From Burkholderia cepacia ATCC 25416 (GTDB lineage: Bacteria; Pseudomonadota; Gammaproteobacteria; Burkholderiales; Burkholderiaceae), in the NCBI RefSeq assembly GCF_001411495.1, contig NZ_CP012983.1:62001-126000 (forward strand): DNA of 64,000 bases. The letters are read 5' to 3'. This document shows, one piece after another, positions 18,559 to 36,476 of this stretch (the stretch's first letter is position 1; every line of letters begins with the position of its first letter). Made by a program: the position numbers and the translations under genes. The notes beneath the pieces were generated by a model. The model was not told where the DNA came from. It was given only the letters and a program-made list of their open reading frames with translations, and ran no database searches.

Positions 18559-18576
18559 ATTGCGAAAAATGACAGT
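18559..18576 (+). promoter_or_regulatory. lux-box-like site, unit 1
   Basis: ATTGCGAAAAATGACAGT, 15 of 18 bases identical to the reverse complement of the site at 35640-35657. The TGACAGT half faces the gene, centred about 71 bp before the ATG at 18639. One of four such sites, each ahead of a transcription unit of the cluster. Confidence 0.55.
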
Positions 18577-18638
18577 TTCTCCGTCCCGGGGTTTTGGATA
18601 GATTGGCCGTACCGCATCCGCATCGCCTCAGGGACACC

Positions 18639-19790
18639 ATGAACTTCGAAGCCACCCCCGATCAACGCGCTGCCGCCGCCACCTATCGCGCCGTCGCGCT
18701 GCGTCACTTCGCGTCGTCGCCGCGCCGCGGCTTCGACTGGGCAACCTGGCGCGCGCTGTCCGAAGCAGGTCTGTGGCGCACGCTCGTCGCCGGCCGCGAT
18801 GCAGGCGCGGACGCGTCGTTGAATGTGTTCATCGCCGCATTCGAGGCGATCGTGACCGCGACGAGATCCGTCGGCTTCGCGATGGCGCTGGCGAATCAGG
18901 CGACCGTGATTCGCGCGCTGCTGCTCCACGGCACACCGTCGCAGCGCGACCGTTTCCTGCCGGCCCTGACGTCCGGCGCGGTGGCCGCGACCGCCATTTC
19001 CGAAAAAGGCACCGGCACCGAAATCCGTGCACTGCAGAGCCGCGTCACGCTGGACGGCCAGGATTGTCGCCTCGACGGTCACAAGTACAACATCAGCCAC
19101 GCCCCGGACGCGGCACTGATCCTCGTCGCCGCGAGCGCCGCGCACGACGGTCGCCCCGGTACGGCGCTGGTTCTTCTCGATCCGCAACGCGCCGGCGTGA
19201 CGCGCACCGCGCCCCAGGAAACCCTGGGCGTCGCCGATCTGCCGATCGGCGACATGACGTTCGACGGTGTTCCCGTCGGCACGGACGATTTGCTTTGCAC
19301 TCCCAAGGACGGATTGCGCGTGCTGATGGACATCGCGTCAATGAACCGCGCGTTGTTCGGCCTGCTGTGCGCGGACGTGGTCGGGCCGTTCCTCGCCGAC
19401 GCACTCGCGTACGTCGGCGAACGCGGCGCGCTCGGCGTGACGCTCGACAAGCATCAGCATGTCCAGCGGCGGCTCGTCGACATTCATGTCGGTGCGGAGC
19501 GCTCGCGCTGGATGGCACTCGCCGCGCTCGACCAGTTGAGGGCGGGCGACCCGTCCGCGCTCGCCAGTTGCTCCATTGCGAAACTGGGCGGCGCCCGCGA
19601 CCTGACCCAGGCCGCGCTGCACCTGCTCGCGATCTACGGCAGCGACGGTTATCGCCGCGGCCCGCTCGCGACCTTCGTTGCCGACGCACTCGCCATGGGA
19701 ACCGCGGGCGGCACCGAAGAAATGCACGCGCGCAACATCTTCAGCCAGATGCAGCGACGCGCGACCGCGTCGCACATGCACGCGGCCTGA
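18639..19790 (+). CDS. Acyl-CoA dehydrogenase-fold flavoprotein, possibly TdaE/TrlF-like
   Basis: A 383-residue protein with the three-part acyl-CoA dehydrogenase layout: N-terminal helices, a middle beta domain with AISEKGTGTEIRAL and LDGHKYNISHAPDA, and C-terminal helices. Where classical enzymes have the catalytic Glu (YEGT), this has GTAGGTEEMHARN, so simple alpha,beta-dehydrogenation is doubtful. In tropone pathways a protein of this fold (TdaE) carries out CoA-ester oxygenolysis and ring oxidation after the phenylacetate catabolon. It heads the plus-strand cluster and is followed by a thioesterase, as TdaE is by TdaD-type proteins. The precise reaction is inferred. Confidence 0.75.
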   Translation: MNFEATPDQRAAAATYRAVALRHFASSPRRGFDWATWRALSEAGLWRTLVAGRDAGADASLNVFIAAFEAIVTATRSVGFAMALANQATVIRALLLHGTPSQRDRFLPALTSGAVAATAISEKGTGTEIRALQSRVTLDGQDCRLDGHKYNISHAPDAALILVAASAAHDGRPGTALVLLDPQRAGVTRTAPQETLGVADLPIGDMTFDGVPVGTDDLLCTPKDGLRVLMDIASMNRALFGLLCADVVGPFLADALAYVGERGALGVTLDKHQHVQRRLVDIHVGAERSRWMALAALDQLRAGDPSALASCSIAKLGGARDLTQAALHLLAIYGSDGYRRGPLATFVADALAMGTAGGTEEMHARNIFSQMQRRATASHMHAA

Positions 19791-19828
19791 GTGCTCAATT
19801 TTCGTTTCTCATCCCGAAGGAGTCTGCC

Positions 19829-20233
19829 TTGACCATCCAGCCCGGCCTCCGTGCCCGTGCCACGCACCGTGTCGATACGATTTCGCTTGCAGATCAATGG
19901 GGCGGCGAAGCGCACGCCCTTGCCAGCCCGATCATGATCATCTTCATCGAGCAGACCTGCATGCAGGCAACCGATCACCTGCTCGGCTCCGACCTGATGA
20001 CGGTCGGCTACAACTTCGAGATCAAGCATCTCGCTCCGACGCCGCCCGACTGGGAAGTCACGGTCGACGCCGAGCTGATCTCCGTGGAAGGCCGGATGAT
20101 GACCTACAAGGTGTCGGTTCGCGATGCGGCCGGCGTCGTCGGCGAAGGCATCCATACACGCTGCGCGGTCGGTCGCGACAGTTTTCACGAGCGGCTTGCC
20201 GAGCGCCGCGACCGCGCACCGGTCGCGCAATGA
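19829..20233 (+). CDS. Hotdog-fold thioesterase-like protein (TdaD-like?)
   Basis: A 134-residue hotdog protein: ATHRVDTISLADQWGGEAHALASPIM..., IEQTCMQATDHLL helix and VSVRDAAGVVGEGIHTRCAV, the pattern of fluoroacetyl-CoA/4HB-CoA type thioesterases. The start is TTG at 19829 with AGGAG seven bases upstream, since no ATG is suitably placed. The gene sits 38 bp after the acyl-CoA dehydrogenase-like gene and likely acts on the same CoA thioester. Confidence 0.75.
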   Translation: MTIQPGLRARATHRVDTISLADQWGGEAHALASPIMIIFIEQTCMQATDHLLGSDLMTVGYNFEIKHLAPTPPDWEVTVDAELISVEGRMMTYKVSVRDAAGVVGEGIHTRCAVGRDSFHERLAERRDRAPVAQ

Positions 20234-20256
20234 GCACCACTGGAGGAGACACCCCG

Positions 20257-21246
20257 ATGCGCCCGACGCCGCTACACGACCTGCGCCTGCCGCTGATCGC
20301 GTCGCCGATGCTGATCGCCAGCTACCCCGAGATGGTGCTGGCGCAGTGCAAGAGCGGGATCGTCGGCGCCTTTCCCGCGCTCAATGCGCGACCGAGCGCG
20401 CAGCTCGGCGACTGGATCGATCGCATCGACGAGGAACTGGCCGCGCACCGTGCCGCCCATCCGGATGCGTGCGTGGGGCCGTACGCGGTCAATCACATCT
20501 GCCATCAGACCAACACGCGGCTCGAAGCGGACTTGCGGATCTGCATCGACCGGCGCACGCCGATCCTGATCACGAGCCTGCGCGCGCCGCCGCGCGAGAT
20601 CGTCGAAGCCGTGCACGCCTACGGCGGTGTCGTGCTGCACGACGTCACGACCGTGCGACACGCGGAGAAAGCGCTCGAGGCCGGTGTCGACGGCCTGATC
20701 CTGGTCGCGGCCGGAGCGGGCGGCCATGCCGGCACGCTGTCCCCGTTCGCGCTGGTGTCGGAGGTGCGCCGCATTCATGACGGCTTCATCGCGTTGTCCG
20801 GCGCGATCGCCACCGGCGCGGCCATCGCGGCGGCGCTTGCACTGGGTGCCGACTGCGCGTACATGGGCACCCGCTTCCTCGCGTCTCACGAAGCCAACGT
20901 GGCGCAGCGCTACAAGGACACGATCGTCGAGGCCACCGCCGCCGACATCGTCTACACCGATGCGTTCAGCGGCGTGCACGGCAACTATCTGCGCCAGAGC
21001 ATCGAGGCCGCGGGCATGGACGTCCGCAACCTGCCCCGCAGCGAGCACGCACACCTCGATTTCTCGCCCGAATCCGGCGCGCGCCAGTGGCGCGACATCT
21101 GGGGCGCCGGCCAGGGCGTGGGCTCGATGGACACGGTACTGAGCGTCGAGCAGATCGTCGCGCAGCTCGAGATCGAGTACGGCGTCGCACTCGAACGCGT
21201 GCGTCACGAGTCCGCCCGCATCGGCCGGCACGCCCCCGCGCACTGA
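20257..21246 (+). CDS. Nitronate monooxygenase-like FMN enzyme
   Basis: A 329-residue TIM-barrel protein with the 2-nitropropane dioxygenase/NMO pattern: LPLIASPMLIAS near the N-terminus, SGIVGAFPALNARP, then GVDGLILVAAGAGGHAG (phosphate/FMN loop) and SGAIATGAAIAAALALGADCAYMGTRF. The start at 20257 has GGAGGAG; an ATG at 20230 overlaps the previous stop but lacks a ribosome site. The family includes nitronate oxidases and enoyl reductases. Its job in this cluster is unclear: ring oxidation, or detoxification of a reactive product. Confidence 0.82.
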   Translation: MRPTPLHDLRLPLIASPMLIASYPEMVLAQCKSGIVGAFPALNARPSAQLGDWIDRIDEELAAHRAAHPDACVGPYAVNHICHQTNTRLEADLRICIDRRTPILITSLRAPPREIVEAVHAYGGVVLHDVTTVRHAEKALEAGVDGLILVAAGAGGHAGTLSPFALVSEVRRIHDGFIALSGAIATGAAIAAALALGADCAYMGTRFLASHEANVAQRYKDTIVEATAADIVYTDAFSGVHGNYLRQSIEAAGMDVRNLPRSEHAHLDFSPESGARQWRDIWGAGQGVGSMDTVLSVEQIVAQLEIEYGVALERVRHESARIGRHAPAH

Positions 21247-21286
21247 CCGGGCACCCGCTTTCTTTCGCTACCTCCACGGTACCGTC

Positions 21287-22423
21287 ATGACCCTCACCGC
21301 CACCGACTTGCCCGCTCTCGATCCGGTCGCGCTGCAACGCGCGCAGATCGATGCCATCGACCAGGAACTGCTCGCGCTGATCGCGCGCAGGATGCAGCAC
21401 GCCGCCGCGATCGGCCGGTTCAAGGCGCTCGACGGCCGGACGATCCGCCAGCCGGCCCGGGAAACGGAAATCGTCGCGGGGCTGTGCGCCCGGCCGCACG
21501 GGCTGCTGCAGGCGCGCCACGTCGCGGCGATCTGGCACACGCTGTTCCGCGTCAGCCGCGAGTTGCAGCGGGTGCCGTCGGTCGCGTTCCTCGGCCCGCC
21601 CGGCACCTTTACCGAGACCGCGATGCAGCGCTACTTCGGCGCCCCGATCCGTCCACATGCGTGCGACACGCTCGAAGCGACATTCGCCGCACTGGCGGCC
21701 GCGAACGTCGACCATGCGGTGGTGCCGATCGAGAATTCAACCGAAGGCACCGTCACGCGCGCGATCGACCTGCTGGCCGACGCGACCGCTCCAGTGGTCG
21801 GCGAGATCGTGCTGCCGGTCGCGCACTGCCTGCTGAGCGCATCCGGCACGCTCGAAGGCGTCGACTGCGTGCTCGGTCATCAGCAGGCGCTGGCGCAGTG
21901 CCGTGCATGGCTCGATGCGCATGCGCCGCAATTGCGCCGCGTGCCTGTCGCGAGCAACGCCGCGGCCGCCCGCGAAGCAGCGAGCATGACGGATTGCGCG
22001 GCGATCGCCGGCGAACGGGCGGCCGACCAGTACGGACTGCGTATCGTGGCGAACGCGATCCAGGACGAGCCCGGCAATCGCACGCGCTTTCTCGTCCTCG
22101 GCGGGCCCCCGGCAGAGCCGACAGGCCATGACCGCACCAGTCTTCTGCTGCAGCTCGACGATACGATCGGCGCGCTCGCAGGCGTGTTCGATGCATTGGC
22201 GCGCCACCGGATCTCGGTGCTGTGGCTCGACGCGCGTCCCGGCCGCGCCGCCGGGTGGGCGTACCGCTTCTTCGTCGACATCGACGGCCACCAGGACGAC
22301 GCGCATGTCCGTGCCGCCCTCGGCGACATCAGGACGATCGCCGCCGACCTGCGAATCCTCGGTTCCTACCCGCGCGCGCCGTTCGTCGATGCCGGCGCCG
22401 TTGCCGAGCCGAGCGCGACATGA
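21287..22423 (+). CDS. pheA: Bifunctional chorismate mutase-prephenate dehydratase, altered ACT domain
   Basis: A 378-residue P-protein: AroQ-type mutase domain (about 12-95; QIDAIDQELLALIARRM), dehydratase domain (about 98-275; VAFLGPPGTFTETA, PIENSTEGTV, and the catalytic NRTRF near 263-267), and a C-terminal ACT domain. It converts chorismate to phenylpyruvate. In the ACT domain the Phe-binding ESRP of family members reads D315-A-R-P and GALV reads GALA, suggesting weakened feedback inhibition. As a cluster copy beside DAHP synthase and shikimate kinase, it likely feeds phenylpyruvate/phenylacetate to the product rather than protein synthesis. Confidence 0.93.
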   Translation: MTLTATDLPALDPVALQRAQIDAIDQELLALIARRMQHAAAIGRFKALDGRTIRQPARETEIVAGLCARPHGLLQARHVAAIWHTLFRVSRELQRVPSVAFLGPPGTFTETAMQRYFGAPIRPHACDTLEATFAALAAANVDHAVVPIENSTEGTVTRAIDLLADATAPVVGEIVLPVAHCLLSASGTLEGVDCVLGHQQALAQCRAWLDAHAPQLRRVPVASNAAAAREAASMTDCAAIAGERAADQYGLRIVANAIQDEPGNRTRFLVLGGPPAEPTGHDRTSLLLQLDDTIGALAGVFDALARHRISVLWLDARPGRAAGWAYRFFVDIDGHQDDAHVRAALGDIRTIAADLRILGSYPRAPFVDAGAVAEPSAT

Positions 22424-23100
22424 GTGCCGCGTCCGCCGATACCGCCGTCGCGCGCCGGGTGCGGGCCATCTGCGACGGTCACGACGATCGCCTGCTGGTC
22501 CTGCTCGGGGTCGTGCCGCCGTCGCTGCGTCGCGACACCGGCGCATGGCTGCGTGCATTGCGCGCGGACTACGAAGACGAACTGGAGTTGCTGACGCATG
22601 TGCAGCGCGTGGCCACGCCGGACGTCGACGACGACGCGCGGGCCGCGCTGCTTCGCCGGCTCGGCAGACTGCGGCTGCCGACGGCGTTGGTCGTCGATAC
22701 GTCCGCGACGGCCTACGGCCGCTGGTGCACGCGGAACGGCGCCACCGCGCACGGCTGGCGGCTGCTGGAAACCGCGCGTGGCGCGGCGCCCGTCGGCGGC
22801 GTACTCGTGCCCTGGCGCGACTGCCTCGCGGCACCCGCGACCTCGCGCCGCGTGCTCGCCGATTTCGGCCATGCGTGGGCCGGCATCGATACGAGCGTCG
22901 CCATGCTGACCGATGCGCTGCTTGCGAACGACGTGCAGGTCGGGGGCATCGCGCTGGGCGATCTGCTCGCGCAACCCGGTGCCGCGCCCGTATCGCCCGC
23001 AAGAATGACCGGCGTCCTGGACCGCCTCGCCAATACGGTGCGCCTGCGCCGTATCACGGCGGCGACGCGCCGGACGCATTCGCTGCGGAGCCGGCTGTGA
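22420..23100 (+). CDS. Shrunken DAHP synthase-like protein lacking catalytic residues
   Basis: A 226-residue protein coupled to pheA by ATGA and to the next gene by GTGA. Residues 14-60 (ICDGHDDRLLVLLG..., ALRADYEDELELL) align with residues 42-86 of the DAHP synthase at 34465 (LAGRDDRLALIVG..., PLRARYADTLEVV). Residues 86-170 align with its C-terminus: LPTALVVDTSATAYG versus LPPHVVIDASHGNSG, VGGVLVPWRD versus IAGVMVESFL. The middle of the barrel (KPRTT, lysines, most metal ligands) is missing, and GPCSIHD has become GVVPPSL. It cannot be a normal synthase; a regulatory or scaffold pseudoenzyme is possible. Clean overlaps argue that it is translated. Confidence 0.7.
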   Translation: MSAASADTAVARRVRAICDGHDDRLLVLLGVVPPSLRRDTGAWLRALRADYEDELELLTHVQRVATPDVDDDARAALLRRLGRLRLPTALVVDTSATAYGRWCTRNGATAHGWRLLETARGAAPVGGVLVPWRDCLAAPATSRRVLADFGHAWAGIDTSVAMLTDALLANDVQVGGIALGDLLAQPGAAPVSPARMTGVLDRLANTVRLRRITAATRRTHSLRSRL

Positions 23101-23612
23101 CGGCAGCGCACCATCCGCGCATCGCGTTGATCGGCATGCCCGGTGCGGGCAAGACGACGATCGGCGCGGCGCTTGCGGCGGCACTCGACCGCCCGTTCGC
23201 GGATTCCGACCGGGAGATGGAGCAGCGCTTCGGCGCCCCGCTTGCCATGCTGTTTCCGCTGCCGACGTTCCGCGCCCGCGAAGCCGGCGTCATCGATGCG
23301 CTGTCGCAACGCGACACGCTGATCCTCGCCACCGGCGGCGGCGCGGTGCTGCGCGACGACACCCGCGCGCGCCTCAAGGCGCGCTGCCACGTGATCTACC
23401 TGGTCAGCGACATCGACGCGCTGTACCGGCGCACCGGGCGCGATCCCGCGCGCCCGCTCCTGAACGTGCCCGATCCGCGCGCCGTGCTGGCCGAGTTGCA
23501 GCGGACGCGCGATCCGCTGTACCGGGCCTGCGCGCATCGCCTGCTCGACACGCGCGGCGCGTCGATCGACGAAATCGTCGCGGCGGCCCTCGCCGAATCC
23601 GCGTCCGCCTGA
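23097..23612 (+). CDS. aroK: Shikimate kinase
   Basis: A 171-residue kinase starting at a GTG that overlaps the previous stop. Walker A is G13-MPGAGKT-T; shikimate/Mg motifs follow as DSDREME (D36, D38), FRAREAGVI (FRxxE), ATGGGAV, and the lid arginines RPLL. It phosphorylates shikimate with ATP. A cluster-borne copy, together with DAHP synthase and PheA, would lift flux to chorismate. Length and motifs are complete, so it should be active. Confidence 0.93.
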   Translation: MTAAHHPRIALIGMPGAGKTTIGAALAAALDRPFADSDREMEQRFGAPLAMLFPLPTFRAREAGVIDALSQRDTLILATGGGAVLRDDTRARLKARCHVIYLVSDIDALYRRTGRDPARPLLNVPDPRAVLAELQRTRDPLYRACAHRLLDTRGASIDEIVAAALAESASA

Positions 23613-23679
23613 CGGTCGCGCCCATGCGCGCGGCTGCCCCGCTCCCGGTTCCCTTCCCGCCCCGTCACGGGCGCTCCCC

Positions 23680-23697: not shown

Positions 23698-23713
23698 TGC
23701 TCGTTGTTTGAGA

Positions 23714-23738: not shown

Positions 23739-23774
23739 GTCTGAATTCGTCAACCGGACTCGTGGAAACCGATC

Positions 23775-25223
23775 ATGTCCAAGTTTCTTGTCTCGACTCG
23801 AAGATGGGGTCCGATCGCTACGGCAGCCGTGACGGCGGCCGTCATGGCCGGTTGTGCCCCGTTCGGCCAGCAGCCGGACCAACAGAAGATCACCCCGGTC
23901 GAACAGCTCGACCCGGGCCTCGCGCTTCACGCGGCCAAGGGTCAGGCCGACGTGGACGCGCAATGGTGGCGCACCTTCGGCGATCCGCAGCTCGACCGCG
24001 TGCTGGCCGACGCGCTCGCGGGCGCGCCGTCGCTGAAGGCCCAGCGCGCCCGGGTCGACGAAGCGCTCGCGCAAGCCGACGTCAGCGCGGCGGATTCCCT
24101 GCCGCTGCTCGGCGCAGCGGTCAGCGCGACGCCGACGCGGCTGCCGCGCAGCTACACCACCCCGCCCCCCGCCGCAGGCCACTGGCAAGTCAACGCGCAG
24201 GCGCTGCTGAATGCGTCGTTCGATCTCGACGTTGCCGGGCGCCTGCGCGCGCTGACCCGCGCCGCGACCCTGCGCGCCGGCGAGCAGCAGTCGCTCGAGC
24301 GCGCGGCAACCGTGTCGTTGCAGGCCGCGCTCGTCGAGACGTACCTGCAGCTCGCGCTCGAGCTGCAACTGCTCGACATCGCGAACGATACGCTGCGTCA
24401 GCACGATTACCTGCTGCGCCTCACCCGCCAGCGTGAAGCGGCGGGACTCGACATGCCGGTCGCGGTCGCGCGTGCCGGCGAGCCGCTGCCGCTCGCGCAG
24501 GCCGATGTCGAGCGGCAGCGCGCGGCCGTTGCGCTGCTGCGCCACCGGCTCGCGGCGCTCGTCGGGCGCGGGCCCGGTTATGCGGACACGCTCACGCCGT
24601 CACCGCGCGTGCTGCATGCCGTCGCGCCGTTGCCCGCGACGCTCCCGGCCGCGCTCGTCGGGCGCCGGCCCGACATCCTGGCCGCCCGCTATCGCGTCGA
24701 GGCCGCGTCGGCCGACATCGACGCGGCCCGCGCGGCGTTCTATCCGGACATCAACCTGATGGCGTTCGTCGGCGTGCAGAGTTTCGGCTTTCGCGCGCTG
24801 CTTCACGGCAGCAGCGGCACGTTCGGCGCCGGCCCCGCGATCACGCTGCCGATCTTCGAAGGCGGCAGGCTGCGAGCCGGCCTGCGCGCGCAGACCGACG
24901 CGTACAACGCCGCCGTCGCCGACTACGACGACACCGTCGTCAACGCGCTCGCCCAGGTCAGCGACTCGCTCGTGCAGCTCGACGCGCTGGCCAGGCAGCG
25001 CGACCTGAATCGCGATGCGCTGGCACGCGCGCAGCAGACCTACGACATCGAGACGCGGCGCTACCAGAAAGGCATTTCCGGCTACCTGGACGTGCTGCTG
25101 GCCGAAACCCGGCTGCTTGAAGACCGCCGGTCGGTCGCTCGCGCCGATACCTCACTTGCCGTCGAGCACGTCCGGCTGATCGCCGCGCTCGGTGGCGCAA
25201 CGAACCCCGGAGCCCAACAATGA
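23775..25223 (+). CDS. Outer-membrane efflux lipoprotein (NodT/OprM type)
   Basis: A 482-residue outer-membrane factor with a lipoprotein signal (AAVTAAVMAGCAP, Cys near residue 26). The pair of OEP domains carries typical features: QWWRTFGDPQLDRVLADAL, LLNASFDLDVAGRLRALTRA, VGRRPDILAARYRVEAASAD and PIFEGGRLRAGL. It forms the trimeric exit duct of a tripartite pump. The stop overlaps the emrA-like ATG (ATGA), so pump genes are coupled. A lux-box-like site and a palindrome lie upstream. Confidence 0.93.
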   Translation: MSKFLVSTRRWGPIATAAVTAAVMAGCAPFGQQPDQQKITPVEQLDPGLALHAAKGQADVDAQWWRTFGDPQLDRVLADALAGAPSLKAQRARVDEALAQADVSAADSLPLLGAAVSATPTRLPRSYTTPPPAAGHWQVNAQALLNASFDLDVAGRLRALTRAATLRAGEQQSLERAATVSLQAALVETYLQLALELQLLDIANDTLRQHDYLLRLTRQREAAGLDMPVAVARAGEPLPLAQADVERQRAAVALLRHRLAALVGRGPGYADTLTPSPRVLHAVAPLPATLPAALVGRRPDILAARYRVEAASADIDAARAAFYPDINLMAFVGVQSFGFRALLHGSSGTFGAGPAITLPIFEGGRLRAGLRAQTDAYNAAVADYDDTVVNALAQVSDSLVQLDALARQRDLNRDALARAQQTYDIETRRYQKGISGYLDVLLAETRLLEDRRSVARADTSLAVEHVRLIAALGGATNPGAQQ

Positions 25224-26467: not shown

Positions 26468-26469
26468 GC

Positions 26470-29346: not shown

Positions 29347-30369
29347 ATGGAATACCGAACCCTCGGCGGAACCGGCTTCAAGGTTCCCGTTCTGAGTCTC
29401 GGCACCGCGACGTTCGGCGGCGGCAACGCATTCTTCAGGGAATGGGGCAGCACGGACGCCGCCGGCGCGCGCGAGCTCCTCGACATCGCGCTCGACGCCG
29501 GCATCTCGATGTTCGACAGCGCGGACGTCTATTCCGACGGACTCGCCGAAGAGCTGCTCGGCCAGGCGATCGCCGGCCGGCGCGATCGCGTGATCGTGTC
29601 GACGAAGGGCACGTTCCGGCTCGGCGAAGGCCCGAATGACGTCGGGTCGTCGCGCCATCATCTCGCCAATGCCATTCACGGCAGCCTCAAGCGGCTCGGC
29701 ACCGACTACATCGACGTGTACCAGTTGCATGGATTCGATGCCCAGACACGCGTCGAGGAAACCCTGCGCACGCTTGACGATTTCGTGCGCGCCGGCAAGA
29801 TCCGCGTGATCGGCTGCTCGAACTTCTCCGGCTGGCACCTGATGAAGTCGCTCGCGGCCGCCGATCGCGACGGGCTCACGCGACATGCCGTGCACCAGGT
29901 CTACTATTCGCTGATCGGCCGCGACTACGAAACGGAGCTGATGCCGCTCGCGCTCGACCAGCAGGTGTCCGCGATCGTCTGGAGCCCGCTCGGGTGGGGA
30001 CGGCTGACCGGCCTGATCGGACGGGGCCGACCGTTGCCGGAGACGAGCCGGCTGCACAAGACCGCCAACGAGGGGCCGCCCGTCACGGATGCCCTGCTGC
30101 ACCACGTCGTCGACGCGCTCGACGAGATCGCCGCCGAAACCGGCAAGTCGGTCGCGCAGGTCGCACTCAATTGGTTGCTGCGGCGGCCGACCGTCGCGAA
30201 CGTGATCATCGGCGCCCGAAACGCCACGCAATTGCGCGAGAACGCGCAGGCGGCCAGCTGGGCCTTGACACCCGACCAGGTGAAACGGCTCGATGCCGCC
30301 AGTACGACGCAACTGCCCTACCCGTACTGGCACCAGCGCGGCTTCGAGCGCAATCCGGCACCGGTCTAA
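29347..30369 (+). CDS. Aldo-keto reductase
   Basis: A 340-residue AKR barrel with the full tetrad D57, Y62, K87, H128 (FDSADVYSDG, STKGTF, YQLHGFD) and C-terminal NADPH-binding VIIGARNATQLRENAQA. Similar to YajO/Tas-type AKRs. It has a good AAGGAG ribosome site and closes the plus-strand operon. Its stop overlaps the convergent FAD monooxygenase by four bases (30366-30369). Likely a carbonyl-reduction tailoring step or precursor aldehyde handling; substrate unknown. Confidence 0.9.
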   Translation: MEYRTLGGTGFKVPVLSLGTATFGGGNAFFREWGSTDAAGARELLDIALDAGISMFDSADVYSDGLAEELLGQAIAGRRDRVIVSTKGTFRLGEGPNDVGSSRHHLANAIHGSLKRLGTDYIDVYQLHGFDAQTRVEETLRTLDDFVRAGKIRVIGCSNFSGWHLMKSLAAADRDGLTRHAVHQVYYSLIGRDYETELMPLALDQQVSAIVWSPLGWGRLTGLIGRGRPLPETSRLHKTANEGPPVTDALLHHVVDALDEIAAETGKSVAQVALNWLLRRPTVANVIIGARNATQLRENAQAASWALTPDQVKRLDAASTTQLPYPYWHQRGFERNPAPV

Positions 30370-31640
30370 TACGGCGCCTGCGCGTGCGGCATCGGCGGCG
30401 ACCGATGCGACGGTACCGCACGCGTCGCCGCGGCCTGCATGCGCGCGGCGAGCGGCGACGCGCCGACCAGCCAGTCCAGCTCGACAGGTAACGGCGGCAG
30501 CGCGGGCGACGCGTGCGCGGTCAGCGCATCGTAGCCGAACACCCAGTCCGGCTCGGTCGGGCCGTGCATGAAGGTATTCGCGGCGGACACGCGATGCACT
30601 TCGCCGAGTCTCGCGACCCGGCACTGCGCATAGGTCGAGAACGCACTCGCCGCGTTCGACGAGCCGATGAGCGCACGCAGCAGGATCGTCGCGTCCTCGA
30701 GCGCCATGGCCGCGCCCTGCGACATGAACGGGCGCATCGGATGACAGGCGTCGCCGATCAGCACGACGCGCTCGTTGCCGAACTCGAACTGCGGCGAACG
30801 TTCGAACAACGCCCACTTCATGACCGACTCGCGTGGCGCGCGTGCCAGCATGTGACGCACGGCCGGATGAAAATCCGCGAAGATCGCCTGCATCTCGTCG
30901 ACGTCGCCCGGCATCGACGAAGCCTGCGTGGGCCACTCGGCCTGCGGTGTCATCGCGGCGAAATAGAATTCGCGGCGCGCACGATCGAGCCAGTACGACA
31001 GCACGAATTTCCGGTCGCCCCACCACTTGGTCAGATCCTCGATCGCGAGTTCGCCCAGCAGCGCGCGCGGATACGCCCCGCGAAACGCGACCTGCCCGGA
31101 GAATTCCGGCGCCTCGAATCCGCGCAGCGCCTCGCGCACGCGCGAGCGCAGGCCGTCTGCCCCGATCACCAGATCGGCCGTTTCGCTCGAACCGTCCTCG
31201 AACGTCAGCCTGATCGCGTCGCCCGCCGGGTCGAGGCCGGCGAGACGCTTGCCCCACGCGATCGTCCCGGGCGCCACCGCCCCCAACAGCGCGGCATGCA
31301 GGTCGCCGCGCTTGAGCGTCACGAACGTCGCGCCGAAGCGGCCGATCGCGTGTTCGCCGAGCGGCAGCCGATACAGCAGCTCACCGTCGGCCGCCTGGCG
31401 GTTGGCGAACGCATCGGGTTCCTGGCCCGCCCACAGGGCCTGGCGATGCACGCCGAGCAGCCGCATCACCCGCATCAGGTTCGGGCTCAGGTGAATGCCG
31501 GCGCCCACCCGGGCAAACGCCGGCGCCTGCTCGAACAGGCGCACGTCATGGCCGATCCGTTGCAGCATCGCGCCGAGCGCGCACCCGCCGATACCCGCGC
31601 CCACGATCGCGATGCGCGCCGCCGAAGTCGTCCCGGTCAT
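30366..31640 (-). CDS. FAD-dependent aromatic monooxygenase (salicylate-hydroxylase-like)
   Basis: A 424-residue group A flavoprotein: FAD-binding GAGIGG at 14-19, DLVIGADGLRSRVR (DG motif), and VVLIGDACHPMRPFMSQGAAMALEDA (GD motif). Closest in style to 6-hydroxynicotinate 3-monooxygenase/salicylate hydroxylase enzymes, which hydroxylate, often with decarboxylation, using NAD(P)H and O2. In Streptomyces tropolone clusters a similar protein (TrlE) hydroxylates the tropone ring. The start overlaps the upstream DUF1330 stop (ATGA). Confidence 0.9.
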   Translation of the reverse strand: MTGTTSAARIAIVGAGIGGCALGAMLQRIGHDVRLFEQAPAFARVGAGIHLSPNLMRVMRLLGVHRQALWAGQEPDAFANRQAADGELLYRLPLGEHAIGRFGATFVTLKRGDLHAALLGAVAPGTIAWGKRLAGLDPAGDAIRLTFEDGSSETADLVIGADGLRSRVREALRGFEAPEFSGQVAFRGAYPRALLGELAIEDLTKWWGDRKFVLSYWLDRARREFYFAAMTPQAEWPTQASSMPGDVDEMQAIFADFHPAVRHMLARAPRESVMKWALFERSPQFEFGNERVVLIGDACHPMRPFMSQGAAMALEDATILLRALIGSSNAASAFSTYAQCRVARLGEVHRVSAANTFMHGPTEPDWVFGYDALTAHASPALPPLPVELDWLVGASPLAARMQAAATRAVPSHRSPPMPHAQAPY

Positions 31641-31954
31641 CCCTGCTCTCCCACGGTTGCCGCCGGTGCCGCGCCCTGTACGATGATGCCGATCGTGCGT
31701 GCGGTGCGTTCGCGAATATCCCGTGCGCGCCGATAGCCGTCGGATTCGTACCACGCCTTTGCGCGGTCGATCGAATCGAATTCGAGCACCACGACGCGCC
31801 GAGGCGACCACGCGCCTTCGAGCGTTGCCGCCTCGCCGCCGCGCACCAGGAAACGCCCGCCGAATTCAGCGACGGTCGGCGCGCCGATCTCGCGGTACTG
31901 CTCATAACCGCGTGCGTCGTGAACGTCGATGTCAAACACGATATATGCCGTCAT
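31637..31954 (-). CDS. DUF1330 protein, copy 1
   Basis: A 105-residue ferredoxin-like-fold protein (MTAYIVFDIDVHDARGYEQY...) with the DUF1330 core GAPTVAEFGGRFLVRGGEAATLEG, RRVVVLEFDSIDRAKAWYES, YRRARDIRERTA. DUF1330 is related to dimeric alpha-beta barrel monooxygenase-like proteins. A paralogue is the next gene upstream (32004). Possibly a cofactor-free oxygenase, isomerase or stabilising partner for a reactive intermediate; nothing in the sequence decides. Confidence 0.85.
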   Translation of the reverse strand: MTAYIVFDIDVHDARGYEQYREIGAPTVAEFGGRFLVRGGEAATLEGAWSPRRVVVLEFDSIDRAKAWYESDGYRRARDIRERTARTIGIIVQGAAPAATVGEQG

Positions 31955-32003
31955 GTCTTCCCCCACTTGGTCTCGCGGGCCGCGGCCGAGCGCGGCCCCG
32001 GTT

Positions 32004-32291
32004 TCACAGGCTCCCGAGCGCGATGCTGTGCGTGTCGGCCGCATCGAGCCGCAGCTGCCTCGCGCGCTGATATTCGTCGGAACCGTGCCAGCGGCGCGCC
32101 GCGTCGAGATCGTCGAACTCCAGCACGACCAGGCGCCGCGGCGTCCATTCGCCTTCGAGCACGACCACGTCGTCGCTGCGCGCGAGCACGCGGCCGCCGT
32201 GCGCGGCGATCGTCGGCACACCGAGCTTCCGGTATTCGGCAAATCGCACTTCGTCGTATACGTCGACATCCACCACCACATAGGCACTCAT
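32004..32291 (-). CDS. DUF1330 protein, copy 2
   Basis: A 95-residue paralogue of the preceding entry ([20 protein letters not shown]..., [39 protein letters not shown]). Both copies keep the R-R-x-V-V-L-E-F-D core. Its start overlaps the ferredoxin stop (ATGA) and 49 bp separate it from copy 1. Tandem duplication with divergence suggests a heterodimer or two successive steps. Confidence 0.85.
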
Positions 32292-32650
32292 GTCCGCTCT
32301 CCCGTTGATGCATCCGCTTCGTCATGCGCGACTTCGGTATCGAATCGCACGAACACCCGGCCCGCCTCGATCTTCACCGGGAACGTCTTCACGCAAGCCG
32401 TGACCGGCGCGCACAGCGCGGCACCGGTCCGCACGCTGAAGCGCCCCTGATGCAGCGGGCACTCGATTTCGTCGTCGAGCAGAAAACCGTCGCTCAGGCG
32501 CGCCTCGCCGTGCGTGCACTGGTTGTCGGTCGCGAAGATCTCGTCGTCGACCGCGAACAGCGCAATGTCGCGCCCGCCGACGATCACGCCCGTCAGCCCC
32601 TCCTCGCGTACCGCGGCCGTATCGACCGCATAGGTCCATTCCGTCTTCAC
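32288..32650 (-). CDS. Rieske-type ferredoxin of ring-hydroxylating oxygenase
   Basis: A 120-residue protein with the Rieske 2Fe-2S ligands C45-x-H47 and C64-x2-H67 ([12 protein letters not shown]..., CPLHQGRF). It passes electrons to the oxygenase encoded just upstream. A reductase gene is absent from the cluster, so reducing power must come from a reductase encoded elsewhere. It lies nine bases after the beta-subunit gene. Confidence 0.93.
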
Positions 32651-32659
32651 GCTGCCTCC

Positions 32660-33193
32660 TCAGATCGGATAGATGATCGAATTCGGCACCATCTCGCTGT
32701 CGTACACGCAGATGCGCGACTCGAAACGCAGCCCGTGCGGCGTGCGGCGTATCCGGTCGAGATAACGACCGGTGTTGTACACGTCGCTCATCTGCTCGCT
32801 CTTGGTACGCAGCACCGCGTAGTTCGTCTCGGCCTCGATGACCGATTCGTCGAGATACGTGATGAGCGGCGTGCCGATCAGGTGGCGCTGGTAATACGGG
32901 TCGTAAAACAGCGTCTCCTTGATGCCGTACACGCGATCCTTCAGCATCCCCTTGCTCTCGAACGCGAGCAGCGCAAGCGGAAAGTCGCGTTCATGGTTCT
33001 CGCGCGGCAACAGCTGATACGTGCAGTCCTCCTCGAAGAATTCCGGCCACGCGTCCCAGTCGCCGCGATCCAGCGCGGACGCGTAGCGCGCGTTCAGGTC
33101 CACGAGCCCGTAGAAATCGGCGAAGGTCGCCGCAACCGTTCCGGTGCCGCGCGTCGCGGGCCGTGCGTCGGCCAATGCGGATGAAATCGTCAT
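32660..33193 (-). CDS. Ring-hydroxylating oxygenase beta subunit
   Basis: A 177-residue SnoaL-like/NTF2-fold subunit: LNARYASALDRGDWDAWPEFFEEDCTYQLLPRENHERDFP and ESKGMLKDRVYGIKETLFYDP are typical of anthranilate/salicylate-type dioxygenase small subunits. It has no metal ligands and structures the alpha3beta3 hexamer. It starts directly after the alpha stop codon. Confidence 0.92.
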   Translation of the reverse strand: MTISSALADARPATRGTGTVAATFADFYGLVDLNARYASALDRGDWDAWPEFFEEDCTYQLLPRENHERDFPLALLAFESKGMLKDRVYGIKETLFYDPYYQRHLIGTPLITYLDESVIEAETNYAVLRTKSEQMSDVYNTGRYLDRIRRTPHGLRFESRICVYDSEMVPNSIIYPI

Positions 33194-34453
33194 TCATGCC
33201 TCCATCACGTGGCGCCAGTACTGGTACATGCCGCGCACGAGCGTTTCGCTGACCATGTGGTCGGTGCGCTCGTCGACTTCGCGGCCGCCGAGCTCGTTGT
33301 ATACGTTGCCGTGCTGGATCTGCTCGAAGCTCTGCTGCACGCACTCGATCACTTCGCCGTCGTCCGCCGAAACGAAGCCGGCCGGCCCGAACAGGTTGGC
33401 CTGACGCAGCCGCCGGCGCGTCATGTCCTCGTCGTCCGTCTCGAATCCGAAGTGCGTCCAGACGTAATCGAACACGCCGGGGCTGACCGGGCGGATGCGC
33501 CGGGTCGACAGCGCATTCACCTGCTGCTGGATGATCACGCTCGGCATCAACGTCAACATCACGACGGTCGGCTCGCCCCACCACGGCTCGTGCACGACGT
33601 CGAGGAAACGGTCGTCGTTCAGCGTCATGCGCTCCTTGAAGCTCGTCACGTTGTGCGTGACCTCGCCGCCGCCCCCGCCGCTGCGGATCGAGATCATCGC
33701 GCCGTGACGGTGATGCGCGTCGGTGACCAGCTGGGCCGGATTGTCCGCGCGCCACAGCCCGAAGTTGACGAACCAGGTGTGCAGGAGCCCCGCGTGATAG
33801 GGGTCCTTGATGTTCTCCACCATCAGCTTCCAGTTGCTCGGCACGCGCTGGCGCGTATAACCGAGCACGGTCAGCTTCGGCCCGTGGAACAGGCGGTCGT
33901 AATAGCGCAGGATGTCGGGACCGAGGAAATCCTCGAACGACTCGACGTCCTGGTCGAACGACGCGAACACCGCGCCGCCGCGCGTCGACACGCGCAGCCG
34001 CCGCAACGCGTGATTCTTCGGATCGAAATCCGGCGGCATGCCGCCGTTGATCTTGCCGCTCTGCCGTACGCCGCGCCGGAACGGCACGCCGACCAGGTTG
34101 CCCTTCAGGTCGTAGTTCCACTGGTGATACGGGCAGTGGAAATCCTTCGCGTTCCCCGCGCGTTCACGACAGAACTGCATGCCGCGATGCGCGCAGGCGT
34201 TCTCGAACACGACCACCTCGCCGTCCTCGGTGCGCGTCATCACGACCGAGCGCTCGCCGACTTCGGTGCGCTGGAAATCGCCGGGAGACGGCACTTCCGC
34301 CTCGAGGCCGATGTAACACCAGTGTTTCGAATAGAACAAACGCTCCAGTTCGCGCTGGTAAAGCGCATCGCTCGTATAGGCTTCGAACGGTGTCCGGCTT
34401 GCGCCGTCCCCCTTCCAGTCGAGCGCGTGTGCGATATCGATGGGTGAGTTCAA
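33194..34453 (-). CDS. Ring-hydroxylating oxygenase alpha subunit
   Basis: A 419-residue catalytic subunit. Rieske ligands are C87-x-H89 and C107-x2-H110; the mononuclear iron site is D217-x2-H220-x4-H225 (NIKDPYHAGLLH). The start is TTG at 34453 with AAAGGAG six bases upstream; the frame extends to 34735 but only Arg-rich shadow lies there. Overall style fits anthranilate, salicylate or terephthalate dioxygenases. In this cluster it could hydroxylate an aromatic precursor or the seven-membered ring. It begins 11 bp after the DAHP synthase stop. Confidence 0.92.
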   Translation of the reverse strand: MNSPIDIAHALDWKGDGASRTPFEAYTSDALYQRELERLFYSKHWCYIGLEAEVPSPGDFQRTEVGERSVVMTRTEDGEVVVFENACAHRGMQFCRERAGNAKDFHCPYHQWNYDLKGNLVGVPFRRGVRQSGKINGGMPPDFDPKNHALRRLRVSTRGGAVFASFDQDVESFEDFLGPDILRYYDRLFHGPKLTVLGYTRQRVPSNWKLMVENIKDPYHAGLLHTWFVNFGLWRADNPAQLVTDAHHRHGAMISIRSGGGGGEVTHNVTSFKERMTLNDDRFLDVVHEPWWGEPTVVMLTLMPSVIIQQQVNALSTRRIRPVSPGVFDYVWTHFGFETDDEDMTRRRLRQANLFGPAGFVSADDGEVIECVQQSFEQIQHGNVYNELGGREVDERTDHMVSETLVRGMYQYWRHVMEA

Positions 34454-34464
34454 GAAAGCTCCTT

Positions 34465-35565
34465 TCAGTAAGAAATGGCTTGTACGGTGCCGGCCGGAAC
34501 ACCCGGTACCAGAAAGCCGACTCGGGACCGCCGCCGCGACGCGACCGCGGCGGCGAACAGCTCGATCAGTGCAACCGTGTCCTCCCAGCCGAGACAGGCG
34601 TCCGTCACGCTCTGCCCGTAGGTCAGTGCCCGGCCGGGCACGATGTCCTGCCGCCCCTCGACGAGAAACGACTCGACCATCACGCCGGCAATCGCGCGCT
34701 GCCCGTCGCGCAGCTGCCCGGCCACGTTCTCGCATACGGCGATTTGGGCGCGCGTCTGCTTTCCGCTGTTGCCGTGACTCGCATCGATCACGACGTGCGG
34801 CGGCAACTGCGCATCGCGCAGCGCCGCACAGGCGGCCGTCACGCTGACGTCGTCGTAGTTCGGCACGCGCCCGCCGCGCAGCACGATGTGCGTATTCGGA
34901 TTGCCCTGCGTGGACGCGACCTCGAGGCCGCCTTCGTCACGCGGACGGAGATAGTGATGCGCTGCCCGCGACGTGCGAACCGCGTCGATCGCGATCTTCA
35001 CGTTGCCGTCGGTGCCGTTCTTGAAGCCGATCGGCGCATCGAGGCCGGATGCGATCTGCCGGTGAATCTGCGACTCGGTCGTGCGTGCGCCGATCGCACC
35101 CCAGGACACCAGATCGTCGAGGTAGGGCGCCGTGAGCGGATCGAGAAACTCGGTCGCGACCGGCATGCCGAGTGCGTTGACGTCGAGCAGCAGGCGACGC
35201 GCAAGACGCAGCCCGTCATCGACGCGATAGCTTCCGTCGAGCCGCGGATCGTTGATCAAGCCCTTCCAGCCGACCGTGGTGCGCGGCTTTTCGAAGTACG
35301 TGCGCATCACGACCTCGAGCGTATCGGCGTAACGCGCCCGCAGCGGCGCGAGCCGGCGCGCGAATTCGAGCGCGGCGTCCGTGTCGTGAATCGAGCACGG
35401 CCCGACGATCAACGCGAGGCGATCGTCCCTGCCCGCGAGGATGCGGGCGAGTGCGCGCTGGGCGCCACGTACCACACGAGTGGTCGCGGCGTCGGCATGC
35501 AACTCGCCGCGCAGTTGCATTGCCCCGGTGACCGCCGCCGTCCCTTTCAGATGAGGCTGTTCCAC
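34465..35565 (-). CDS. DAHP synthase, AroG/AroF/AroH type (type I alpha)
   Basis: A 366-residue enzyme condensing phosphoenolpyruvate and erythrose-4-phosphate, the entry to the shikimate pathway. Motifs: GPCSIHD with metal ligand C57, YFEKPRTTVGWKGLINDP (PEP binding), and GFKNGTDGN. Further motifs are IVLRGG and VVIDASHGNSGKQ with the metal His. It is a full-length secondary copy heading the minus-strand oxygenase operon, about 83 bp from a lux-box-like site. Feedback specificity cannot be read with confidence. A degenerate homologue is encoded at 22420. Confidence 0.95.
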   Translation of the reverse strand: MEQPHLKGTAAVTGAMQLRGELHADAATTRVVRGAQRALARILAGRDDRLALIVGPCSIHDTDAALEFARRLAPLRARYADTLEVVMRTYFEKPRTTVGWKGLINDPRLDGSYRVDDGLRLARRLLLDVNALGMPVATEFLDPLTAPYLDDLVSWGAIGARTTESQIHRQIASGLDAPIGFKNGTDGNVKIAIDAVRTSRAAHHYLRPRDEGGLEVASTQGNPNTHIVLRGGRVPNYDDVSVTAACAALRDAQLPPHVVIDASHGNSGKQTRAQIAVCENVAGQLRDGQRAIAGVMVESFLVEGRQDIVPGRALTYGQSVTDACLGWEDTVALIELFAAAVASRRRSRVGFLVPGVPAGTVQAISY

Positions 35566-35694: not shown

Positions 35695-35774
35695 ATCTAA
35701 AACCATCCGATTCAATTTATTTTCATCGCGAGGACATGCGCCATTGCACCTCGCACTCTCACATGGAGATACAC

Positions 35775-36200
35775 ATGACGAAAAATCATTATGAAACTGA
35801 AATTACCGTTAAATACCGGGAGACGGACGGACTCGGGCATGTCAGCAGCCCGGTTTATTACGATTACCTTCAACACGCGTATCTGACGTTCATGCACGAC
35901 CTGCTGGAGCTGCCGTATTCGGAGAAGTTGCCGCACATCATGGTCAAGACGTCGTGCGAGTACCTGAAGCCCGCGCAGTACGGGGATACGATCACGGTAC
36001 GCAGCAGCATTACCCGTTTCGGCTCGAAGAGCTTCGAGCTCGAGCACCTGATGATGCGGGACAACGGCGCGGCCGGCGACGACGCGATCGTTGCCCGCGC
36101 ACAGTCGACGCACGTGATGTTCGACTATGCGAGCAATGCGACGATGCCGGTTCCCGAAGAGTTCAAGGCACGCGTGCTGGCGTTCCAGGGCGCGATCTGA
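35775..36200 (+). CDS. Acyl-CoA thioesterase, 4-hydroxybenzoyl-CoA/YbgC type
   Basis: A 141-residue hotdog enzyme. YRETDGLGHVSSPVYYDYLQHA matches the family active-site pattern Y-x-x-T-D-x-x-G-H-V-x-x-x-x-Y. It hydrolyses aromatic or short acyl-CoA thioesters. GGAGA precedes the ATG at 35775; earlier in-frame Mets lack a ribosome site. It is divergent from the DAHP synthase operon and is the cluster's second, unrelated-looking hotdog protein. A terminator follows at 36212. Confidence 0.88.
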   Translation: MTKNHYETEITVKYRETDGLGHVSSPVYYDYLQHAYLTFMHDLLELPYSEKLPHIMVKTSCEYLKPAQYGDTITVRSSITRFGSKSFELEHLMMRDNGAAGDDAIVARAQSTHVMFDYASNATMPVPEEFKARVLAFQGAI

Positions 36201-36211
36201 CAAACGGCTTC

Positions 36212-36231
36212 CCGGGGCGGGCGCCCCGGGT
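36212..36231. terminator. Intrinsic terminator
   Basis: CCCGGGGCG-GG-CGCCCCGGG, perfect 9-bp arms followed by TCCTTTCT. It ends the thioesterase gene and separates it from the convergent LuxR-type gene (stop 36237). Confidence 0.8.
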
Positions 36232-36236
36232 CCTTT

Positions 36237-36476
36237 CTAAACGAATACGATCAGGCCCATCAGCACGGCTTTCACGACCGCGTTTGTCTTGTTCGAAGCG
36301 TCCAGCTTGGCAATGGAACGTGAAATGTGAAAATTGATCGTACGTTCGGTCAATCCGAGAATCATGCCTATCTCATAGGCAGTCTTCCCTTCGGCTGCCC
36401 ATTTCAATACTTCACACTCTCTCGTGCTCAACGCGACCGCAGTGGGGGGTGTCATGTTCAATGCCAACCGAGTCAT
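36237..36476 (-). CDS. Stand-alone LuxR-type DNA-binding domain protein
   Basis: A 79-residue protein that is almost entirely a LuxR/GerE HTH: LSTRECEVLKWAAEGKTAYE, IGMILGLTERTINFHISRSI and ASNKTNAVVKAVLMGLI. The wording closely follows quorum-sensing LuxR proteins (ERTINFH, NKTNAV), but the roughly 160-residue acyl-homoserine-lactone-binding domain is absent. The ATG at 36476 has GGAGA six bases upstream; the frame extends to 36569 without adding a domain. It could be a constitutive activator, an inhibitor by heterodimerisation, or the relic of a longer gene. Confidence 0.85.
   Translation of the reverse strand: MTRLALNMTPPTAVALSTRECEVLKWAAEGKTAYEIGMILGLTERTINFHISRSIAKLDASNKTNAVVKAVLMGLIVFV

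What the first reader, a model, noticed from the sequence alone, without database searches (positions are those of the whole stretch)
18559..36476. Candidate tropolone-type biosynthetic and export cluster with its own shikimate supply
Seen: PheA, DAHP synthase, shikimate kinase, acyl-CoA dehydrogenase-fold protein, two hotdog thioesterases, salicylate-hydroxylase-like FAD enzyme, Rieske oxygenase, two exporters and a LuxR-type protein. Known: tropone pathways (tda in Phaeobacter, trl in Streptomyces) draw on phenylacetate catabolism and pair TdaE-fold flavoproteins with thioesterases; trl clusters also carry DAHP synthase, prephenate dehydratase and a TrlE-type monooxygenase. Inferred: this is a Burkholderia variant with an added Rieske oxygenase, NMO-like enzyme, AKR and DUF1330 pair, so the product may be new. 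Alternative: a benzoate-like shikimate product.
Basis: partly seen in the sequence, partly recalled or inferred. Interest (0 to 1): 0.85.

Follow-up and report, generated by a model that had tools for sequence, protein, structure and literature searches.

The report
Tropone-type gene cluster with Rieske oxygenase
A Burkholderia gene cluster, shared with related soil and plant bacteria, looks like a new version of the machinery that turns a by-product of phenylacetate breakdown into seven-membered-ring, metal-binding compounds, but with its own thioesterase, a salicylate-hydroxylase-like oxygenase and what looks like a dead copy of a shikimate enzyme.

Summary
The genes are real and form a conserved block: two convergent gene runs (18639-30369 +, 30366-35565 -), then TdaD and a LuxR-type regulator. 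The flavoprotein is not an ordinary acyl-CoA dehydrogenase. It groups with the tropone enzyme TdaE, in a separate subclade with its own residue signature, and sits beside (in two database proteins, fused to) an FlK-type thioesterase. The 4HBT protein is TdaD (61% to Phaeobacter, 66% to B. plantarii). DAHP synthase, PheA, a DAHP-synthase-like protein without catalytic motifs (orf5), shikimate kinase and LuxR are shared with a B. plantarii-type tropolone locus. New relative to that locus are FlK, an NMO-like protein and a Rieske oxygenase closest to salicylate 5-hydroxylase, the most conserved protein of the cluster (86-98%). The FAD enzyme is nearest 6-hydroxynicotinate 3-monooxygenase, with TrlE second; it, the extra MFS and the AKR are accessory. 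Phenylacetate catabolon genes are present. A 2024 mBio paper already listed TpoE-type clusters with such thioesterases, B. cepacia included, as uncharacterised. Best reading: a tropone-type cluster making a hydroxylated tropolone or tropone acid. The product is not shown.

The parts
18639..19790 (+). TdaE-family flavoprotein of a divergent subclade (here called TdaE2)
   Evidence: ACAD fold; 43% to P. inhibens TdaE, 40% to the B. plantarii-type TdaE; trees and residue signature; the Glu of the YEG motif of 1ukw aligns with Gly357
19829..20233 (+). FlK-type (COG5496-like) hotdog thioesterase, TTG start
   Evidence: Pfam FlK 86 bits; Ser, Glu and His at the positions of the FlK triad in the alignment to 3kuv (triad recalled); fusions P0028 and P0165 with a TdaE-like protein
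20230..21246 (+). nitronate monooxygenase-like protein
   Evidence: Pfam NMO 93 bits; 72-80% in related clusters, 91% in G014
21287..22423 (+). PheA: chorismate mutase / prephenate dehydratase / ACT
   Evidence: Pfam PDT, CM_2, ACT
22420..23100 (+). orf5: degenerate DAHP synthase paralogue without catalytic motifs
23097..23612 (+). shikimate kinase
   Evidence: Pfam SKI 135 bits
23775..25223 (+). outer-membrane efflux protein (NodT/OEP type)
   Evidence: Pfam OEP
25220..26467 (+). membrane-fusion protein (HlyD/EmrA type)
   Evidence: Pfam HlyD_D23, HlyD_3
26470..28008 (+). MFS exporter (EmrB type)
   Evidence: Pfam MFS_1; 80-95% in related clusters
28032..29231 (+). second MFS exporter (accessory)
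   Evidence: Pfam MFS_1; besides the window seen only in G014 and P. ferrariae
29347..30369 (+). aldo/keto reductase (accessory)
   Evidence: Pfam Aldo_ket_red; a 50-residue match in G014, none in the other related clusters
30366..31640 (-). FAD hydroxylase, nearest 6-hydroxynicotinate 3-monooxygenase, TrlE-like entry second (accessory)
   Evidence: relatives at 63-92% only in G014, P. ferrariae, P. ribeironis and T. soli
31637..31954 (-). DUF1330 protein a
   Evidence: Pfam
32004..32291 (-). DUF1330 protein b
   Evidence: Pfam
32288..32650 (-). Rieske ferredoxin
   Evidence: Pfam Rieske
32660..33193 (-). Rieske oxygenase beta subunit
   Evidence: Pfam Ring_hydroxyl_B
33194..34453 (-). Rieske oxygenase alpha subunit, salicylate 5-hydroxylase (NagG) type; start uncertain
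   Evidence: 651 bits to 7c8z; equivalents of NagG M257, Q316, R323 kept in 14 of 14 homologues examined, 2 of them outside the cluster
34465..35565 (-). class I DAHP synthase, all five motifs present
   Evidence: Pfam
35775..36200 (+). TdaD/TpoD-type thioesterase
   Evidence: 61% to P. inhibens TdaD, 66% to the B. plantarii-type locus; B. plantarii protein P0199 is identical to that of the locus
36237..36476 (-). LuxR-type regulator, DNA-binding domain only
   Evidence: Pfam GerE; 51% to the DNA-binding end of the full-length LuxR of the B. plantarii-type locus

Best explanation
A tropone-type biosynthetic and export cluster. DAHP synthase, shikimate kinase and PheA push carbon to phenylpyruvate and so to phenylacetate (inferred). 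The chromosomal phenylacetate catabolon makes the seven-membered shunt thioester 2-hydroxycyclohepta-1,4,6-triene-1-carboxyl-CoA (established elsewhere; some of its genes shown here). TdaE2 oxidises the ring. FlK and/or TdaD removes CoA, leaving tropone-2-carboxylate or its epoxide, a ring with an oxygen beside a carboxylate, i.e. shaped like salicylate. The Rieske oxygenase, a salicylate 5-hydroxylase relative that keeps the carboxylate-binding Arg, hydroxylates this acid or the tropolone derived from it; in some strains the FAD enzyme may replace the carboxylate by hydroxyl. The OEP-HlyD-MFS pump exports a hydroxylated, metal-binding tropolone or tropone acid. All steps from TdaE2 onward are inferred from homology.
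For: TdaE-family placement; 39 of 91 TdaE-specific invariant residues kept in at least 90% of the subclade; TdaD 61-66%; DAHPS, PheA, TdaD and LuxR 59, 50, 66 and 51% to the B. plantarii-type locus, orf5 51% over 53 residues and 29% over the alignment, shikimate kinase 46%; that genome named by a TdaD identical to P0199 [Burkholderia plantarii]; paa genes; flavoprotein next to FlK in 10 of 12 related loci and fused in P0028 and P0165; cluster-type Rieske gene in 10 of 11 related genomes given to the search; NagG-like residues (proposed role of R323 from PMC9060491, passages).
Against: No product or activity is shown. 20 of the 91 TdaE-specific residues are found in under 20% of the subclade, and the TdaE paper says active-site residues are conserved in all predicted functional homologues (PMC8283759, section 9). 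The authors of PMC11481866 think it likely that many TpoE-associated clusters do not make tropolones. None of the 20 cluster proteins scanned is a Rieske reductase. In two Trinickia genomes the related flavoprotein stands apart: about 60 kb from the cluster in T. soli, and with no cluster seen around it or around the only Rieske relative in Trinickia sp. Y13.
Confidence: 0.66

Rival explanations
1. Plain tropolone cluster: TdaE2 and TdaD make tropolone as in B. plantarii; FlK is a helper thioesterase and the Rieske/DUF1330 set makes some hydroxytropolone as a side product or serves self-protection.
For: Shared DAHPS-TdaD-TdaE-PheA-orf5-SK set with the B. plantarii-type locus; a review says B. 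glumae and B. gladioli also make tropolone (PMC7497051, passages).
Against: Eight signature positions are changed uniformly in the core subclade, and the Rieske alpha subunit is the best conserved protein of the cluster (92-98% in Burkholderia), unlike a side function.
Confidence: 0.2
2. A different CoA-ester pathway: TdaE2 and FlK process another aryl- or acyl-CoA and the cluster makes a benzenoid salicylate/gentisate-like compound.
For: Rieske alpha subunit resembles salicylate 5-hydroxylase and the FAD enzyme 6-hydroxynicotinate 3-monooxygenase; changed flavoprotein signature.
Against: No salicylate synthase, CoA ligase or carrier protein among the Pfam matches of the cluster; TdaD retained; precursor genes lead to phenylpyruvate, not salicylate.
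Confidence: 0.12
3. Two separate neighbours: a tropone operon (18639-30369 plus DAHPS/TdaD) and an unrelated aromatic-acid detoxification operon (Rieske, DUF1330, FAD).
For: The Rieske operon is on the other strand; the FAD gene is absent from 10 of 14 related clusters.
Against: The Rieske genes lie directly behind the cluster's own DAHPS on the same strand and stay with it in Burkholderia, Trinickia and Paraburkholderia, including the rearranged P. ribeironis locus.
Confidence: 0.05

Closest known systems
   Same: DAHPS, TdaD, TdaE family, PheA, orf5, shikimate kinase, LuxR, OEP/HlyD/MFS-like exporter matches
   Different: Flavoprotein only 40% identical; no FlK, NMO, Rieske or DUF1330 match in L044; its LuxR has an autoinducer domain, the window's does not
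tda cluster of Phaeobacter inhibens (tropodithietic acid)
   Same: TdaE-family flavoprotein 43%, TdaD 61%
   Different: No glutathione S-transferase (TdaB-like; label recalled) among the Pfam matches of the window cluster; carries shikimate genes and a Rieske oxygenase
tpo cluster of Pseudomonas (3,7-dihydroxytropolone; PMC11481866)
   Same: TpoE/TpoD-type pair (by the paper's homology statements; no tpo sequence was compared by name)
   Different: Precursor supply by TpoF/TpoG/TpoN there (paper), by DAHPS/SK/PheA here
Uncharacterised TpoE clusters with COG5496 thioesterases (B. cepacia and others; PMC11481866, section 10)
   Same: Probably the same kind of cluster: TdaE-like protein with a small FlK-type thioesterase in B. 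cepacia; the cluster studied here also lies in B. cepacia LK29 (L006/L059)
   Different: The paper text gives no gene list or mechanism for it; figures and supplements were not seen, so identity is not proven
trl cluster of Streptomyces
   Same: Distant similarity of the FAD enzyme to the TrlE-like PDB entry 8rqh (162 bits)
   Different: TrlF is PaaY-type (PMC11110157); no hexapeptide (PaaY-like) protein among the Pfam matches of the window cluster
Salicylate 5-hydroxylase NagGH
   Same: Alpha subunit 651 bits, three NagG residues kept
   Different: No reductase and no gentisate-cleaving family among the cluster's Pfam matches; embedded in a biosynthetic cluster

Membership tests
TdaE/TpoE-dependent tropone cluster (Gram-negative type) | Flavoprotein of the TdaE family | tested here: met
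   36 family rows (91/99, 100/99) and 48 family rows (100/99) set apart from the host acyl-CoA dehydrogenases in the tree (6, 11 and 7 rows); window in its own subclade beside canonical TdaE
TdaE/TpoE-dependent tropone cluster (Gram-negative type) | TdaE active-site signature conserved | tested here: inconclusive
   91 TdaE-specific invariant columns: 39 kept in at least 90% of 15 subclade rows, 20 in under 20%; which columns the paper means (Figures S61-S62) was not seen
TdaE/TpoE-dependent tropone cluster (Gram-negative type) | TdaD/TpoD-type thioesterase (COG0824 in the paper) in the cluster | tested here: met
   35775-36200, 61% to the P. inhibens thioesterase beside TdaE
TdaE/TpoE-dependent tropone cluster (Gram-negative type) | Phenylacetate catabolon in the genome | tested here: met
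   two PaaA_PaaC matches at C1:1152301-1154324; PaaN2 at C1:1364209-1365867; no PaaZ fusion over the cut-off; paaG, paaK and other paa genes not searched
TdaE/TpoE-dependent tropone cluster (Gram-negative type) | Makes a tropone or tropolone | not testable with these tools
   needs LC-MS or enzyme assay
trl-type (Streptomyces) hydroxytropolone cluster | PaaY-type thioesterase TrlF | tested here: not met
   no hexapeptide family among Pfam matches of the 20 cluster proteins
trl-type (Streptomyces) hydroxytropolone cluster | TrlE as nearest relative of the FAD enzyme | tested here: not met
   among PDB sequences 6-hydroxynicotinate 3-monooxygenase 333 bits, tropone 2-monooxygenase 8rqh 162 bits; no tree
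Salicylate 5-hydroxylase | NagG-type alpha subunit with carboxylate Arg | tested here: met
   651 bits; R317 in 14 of 14 homologues examined
Salicylate 5-hydroxylase | Converts salicylate to gentisate | not testable with these tools
   substrate unknown
DAHP synthase (orf5) | DAHPS fold | tested here: met
DAHP synthase (orf5) | Catalytic motifs GPCS, KPRTT, FKN(G/S)T, D(A/V)SH, ESxLxxGRQ | tested here: not met
   0 of 11 orf5 rows, 10 of 10 true DAHPS rows for each motif

The most novel reading that the evidence does not exclude
A third bacterial route to tropolones: TdaE2 has lost self-cleavage of the thioester and works as a ring dehydrogenase coupled to (sometimes fused with) an FlK-type thioesterase; the released tropone-2-carboxylate is then hydroxylated by a captive salicylate 5-hydroxylase, a Rieske oxygenase acting on a seven-membered aromatic ring, of which one full-text search found no report; and an inactive DAHP synthase (orf5) binds the active one to free it from feedback control.
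Probability: 0.3. Interest if true: 0.78.

Novelty: new variant of a known kind. Interest (0 to 1): 0.58.

Why it matters
Tropolones are virulence factors, antibiotics and metal chelators, and how Pseudomonas adds further ring hydroxyls is an open question named in PMC11481866 (section 11). A Rieske oxygenase kept at 86-98% inside a TdaE-type cluster across three genera is a concrete candidate for that kind of step in Burkholderia and its kin. The FlK coupling speaks to whether TdaE homologues cleave CoA themselves (TdaE_Pi, TdaE_Bp) or need a partner (TpoE). The DAHP-synthase-like protein without catalytic motifs, shared by several tropone loci, suggests a way in which such clusters open the shikimate gate.

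Tried and rejected
Considered and dropped: ordinary fatty-acid or isovaleryl dehydrogenase for 18639-19790 (trees; only 85 bits to the best PDB chain); cepabactin as product (seen in B. cepacia extracts, PMC7912996 passages; no methyltransferase among the cluster's Pfam matches); anthranilate dioxygenase for the Rieske alpha subunit (NCBIfam AndAc 376 bits against a 750 cut-off, versus 651 bits to NagG). L044 was first taken for B. plantarii from its gene order, then for B. perseverans from P0057 (99%), then again as a B. plantarii-type genome because its TdaD is identical to P0199; the B. perseverans TdaD P0201 differs from it at one residue, so the species is not certain, and the published accession WP_042624079.1 itself was never in hand. 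Full-text searches for tropone+Rieske (one unrelated paper), tropolone+salicylate 5-hydroxylase (none) and tropolone+fluoroacetyl-CoA thioesterase (none) gave nothing; only CC-licensed PMC papers are held. Co-occurrence of window-type and canonical flavoproteins in Burkholderia (6 of 10 against 9 of 55 genomes, Fisher p 0.007; the partial match in G009 was left out of both) ignores relatedness, so little weight is put on it. In the trees several outgroup branches are very long. The group holding the window subclade and its nearest rows has 92/96 (20 rows), 87/36 (19 rows) and 99/98 (19 rows); its order relative to the Roseobacter and the other canonical TdaE rows is unresolved. No tree was made for the FAD enzyme or the Rieske subunit.
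Full report
What is there. The window lies on contig C3 (62001-126000) of an 8.6 Mb, four-contig genome of the genus Burkholderia (inferred from its matches). Between a GH114-type glycosidase gene (17445-18323, minus) and a LysR/AsmA neighbourhood lies a compact block. A plus-strand run holds flavoprotein, FlK thioesterase, NMO-like protein, PheA, orf5, shikimate kinase, outer-membrane factor, HlyD protein, MFS exporter, second MFS, AKR. Several stops and starts overlap by 4 bases. A minus-strand run holds DAHP synthase, Rieske alpha, beta, ferredoxin, two DUF1330, FAD hydroxylase, and meets the first at 30366-30369. TdaD (35775-36200, plus) is divergent from DAHPS, and a 79-residue LuxR-type DNA-binding protein follows on the minus strand.

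The flavoprotein. tblastn against plasmid records gave B. arboris first (67%), then Phaeobacter TdaE at about 43% over about 90% of the query (40 of 645 matching records listed). Pfam shows only the generic dehydrogenase domains. Trees with 36 family rows and 6 or 11 host acyl-CoA dehydrogenase rows, and with 48 family rows and 7 host rows, set the family apart at 91/99, 100/99 and 100/99. Inside it the window falls in a Burkholderia/Paraburkholderia/Trinickia subclade (17 rows, 100/100; 14 rows, 100/99), beside canonical TdaE (P. inhibens, the B. plantarii-type locus and others); the exact branching is not settled. Four outgroup rows and seven near-duplicate rows were dropped, and 19 rows added. 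In nine canonical rows (of 15 in that tree) 132 columns are invariant; 91 of these are rare in the host dehydrogenases; 39 of the 91 are kept in at least 90% of 15 subclade rows (of 17) and 20 in under 20%. The core subclade reads N86, S121, I203, N236, A238, F240, H274, A356, where canonical TdaE reads A, A, T, G, mostly L, Y, Y, V; both share Q87, N151, G357 and G358. In the alignment to 1ukw the Glu of the YEG motif, the usual catalytic base (recalled), is Gly357; the alternative base position of isovaleryl-CoA dehydrogenase (recalled) aligns with N236. So it is TdaE-like in lacking a standard base, with changed residues that probably, though not shown here, line the pocket.

Two thioesterases. 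The first is FlK-type: 86 bits to Pfam FlK, about 50 bits to FlK structures with Ser, Glu and His at the triad positions (triad recalled). It follows the flavoprotein in 10 of 12 related loci. P0028 is a flavoprotein-FlK fusion inside the subclade, and P0165 a second one at the base of the family. In 8 canonical loci (L015, L043, L044, L046-L050) tblastn at E 1e-4 found no FlK, NMO or Rieske relative within the roughly 9-10 kb on either side that was held; further out, the host's second locus has one weak NMO match (26%). The second thioesterase is TdaD: 61% to the P. inhibens protein and 66% to L044. In the protein search 107 of 112 candidates reached E 1e-30, and the two named Burkholderia plantarii are 66% identical to the window protein; P0199 is identical to L044 TdaD. 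This makes L044 a B. plantarii-type tropolone locus and shows that the window locus is a different type.

The Rieske oxygenase. The alpha subunit's best PDB relative is salicylate 5-hydroxylase (7c8z, 651 bits over residues 11-416; the next is 290 bits). Reading the printed alignment, with chain numbering offset by 19 (my count), NagG M257, Q316 and R323 correspond to M252, Q310 and R317; these are kept in 14 of 14 homologues examined, two of them 71% relatives outside the cluster. M257 and R323 are named in PMC9060491 (passages), which says R323 is proposed to bind the substrate carboxylate; Q316 is recalled. The alpha subunit is 86-98% identical among clusters, while the flavoprotein is 61-68% in most of them and 86% in G014. 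Of 11 related genomes given to the search (of 12 loci; B. arboris L004 not given), all had a match; in 10 it is the cluster gene, and in Trinickia sp. Y13 only a 71% relative lies elsewhere.

Accessory parts. Among 14 related clusters the FAD enzyme is found in 4 (G014, P. ferrariae, P. ribeironis, T. soli; 63-92%), the second MFS in G014 and P. ferrariae, and the AKR only as a 50-residue match in G014. Shikimate kinase was not found in two Trinickia clusters, nor PheA, orf5, SK and the outer-membrane factor in T. soli. T. soli keeps FlK, NMO, HlyD, MFS, FAD, the Rieske set, DAHPS, TdaD and LuxR together, with its flavoprotein about 60 kb away on the same contig. In 398 Burkholderiaceae genomes, 30 had a match at E 1e-75: 17 with the window subclade (over 400 bits) and 20 with a more distant homologue (262-316 bits), 7 with both.

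Host capacity. Two PaaA_PaaC proteins and PaaN2 (907 bits) are present; a PaaZ fusion is not found over the cut-off, so the aldehyde step is probably served by PaaN2 and a separate hydratase (inference). The same genome has a second tropone-type locus on C1, about 2872-2890 kb: shikimate kinase, TdaD (76%), DAHPS, exporter, full LuxR, GATase, Cys/Met PLP enzyme, PNPOx-like protein and canonical TdaE.

How it probably works, and novelty. In P. inhibens and B. plantarii TdaE opens the thioester itself (PMC8283759, sections 5 and 9 and passages seen). In Pseudomonas TpoE needs TpoD (PMC11481866, sections 10 and 11 and passages seen). In Streptomyces TrlF and TrlE do it differently (PMC11110157, passages). 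The window type adds FlK and a salicylate 5-hydroxylase relative, and tropone-2-carboxylate is a plausible salicylate mimic. I therefore expect a hydroxylated tropolone or tropone acid. The cluster is a new variant of a known kind: the mBio paper had noticed COG5496 thioesterases in uncharacterised TpoE clusters including B. cepacia. The Rieske oxygenase (0 occurrences of the word in its main text), the subclade signature and the degenerate DAHPS are not in what I read; its figures and supplements were not seen.

Noticed in passing
G000 C1 about 2872000-2890000 (loci L122, L043): A second tropone-type locus in the same genome with canonical TdaE (54% to P. inhibens), TdaD, DAHPS, shikimate kinase, exporter, full-length LuxR and a Cys/Met PLP enzyme; beyond TdaE the frames look by eye like mobile DNA. 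Possibly a sulfur-containing tropone cluster.
   Followed up: partly
22420-23100; also L044:11950-12789, L049:13015-13833, L050:6045-6863: A DAHP-synthase-like protein without catalytic motifs, conserved beside PheA in several tropone loci and fast-evolving.
   Followed up: yes
proteins P0028 and P0165: Fusions of a TdaE-like flavoprotein with an FlK-type thioesterase, one inside the window subclade and one at the base of the family.
   Followed up: partly
L101/L102 and L014 (Trinickia soli): Cluster without the flavoprotein, which lies about 60 kb away on the same contig; a second salicylate 5-hydroxylase-like gene set (71%) on another contig (L103).
   Followed up: partly
36237-36476: LuxR-type regulator reduced to the DNA-binding domain, whereas the B. 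plantarii-type locus has a full-length one with an autoinducer domain.
   Followed up: partly
L045 (G009:C1:114142-114594): A partial match to the window-type flavoprotein (60% over 149 residues) with no other cluster gene recognised nearby except a weak shikimate kinase match; perhaps a remnant.
   Followed up: no
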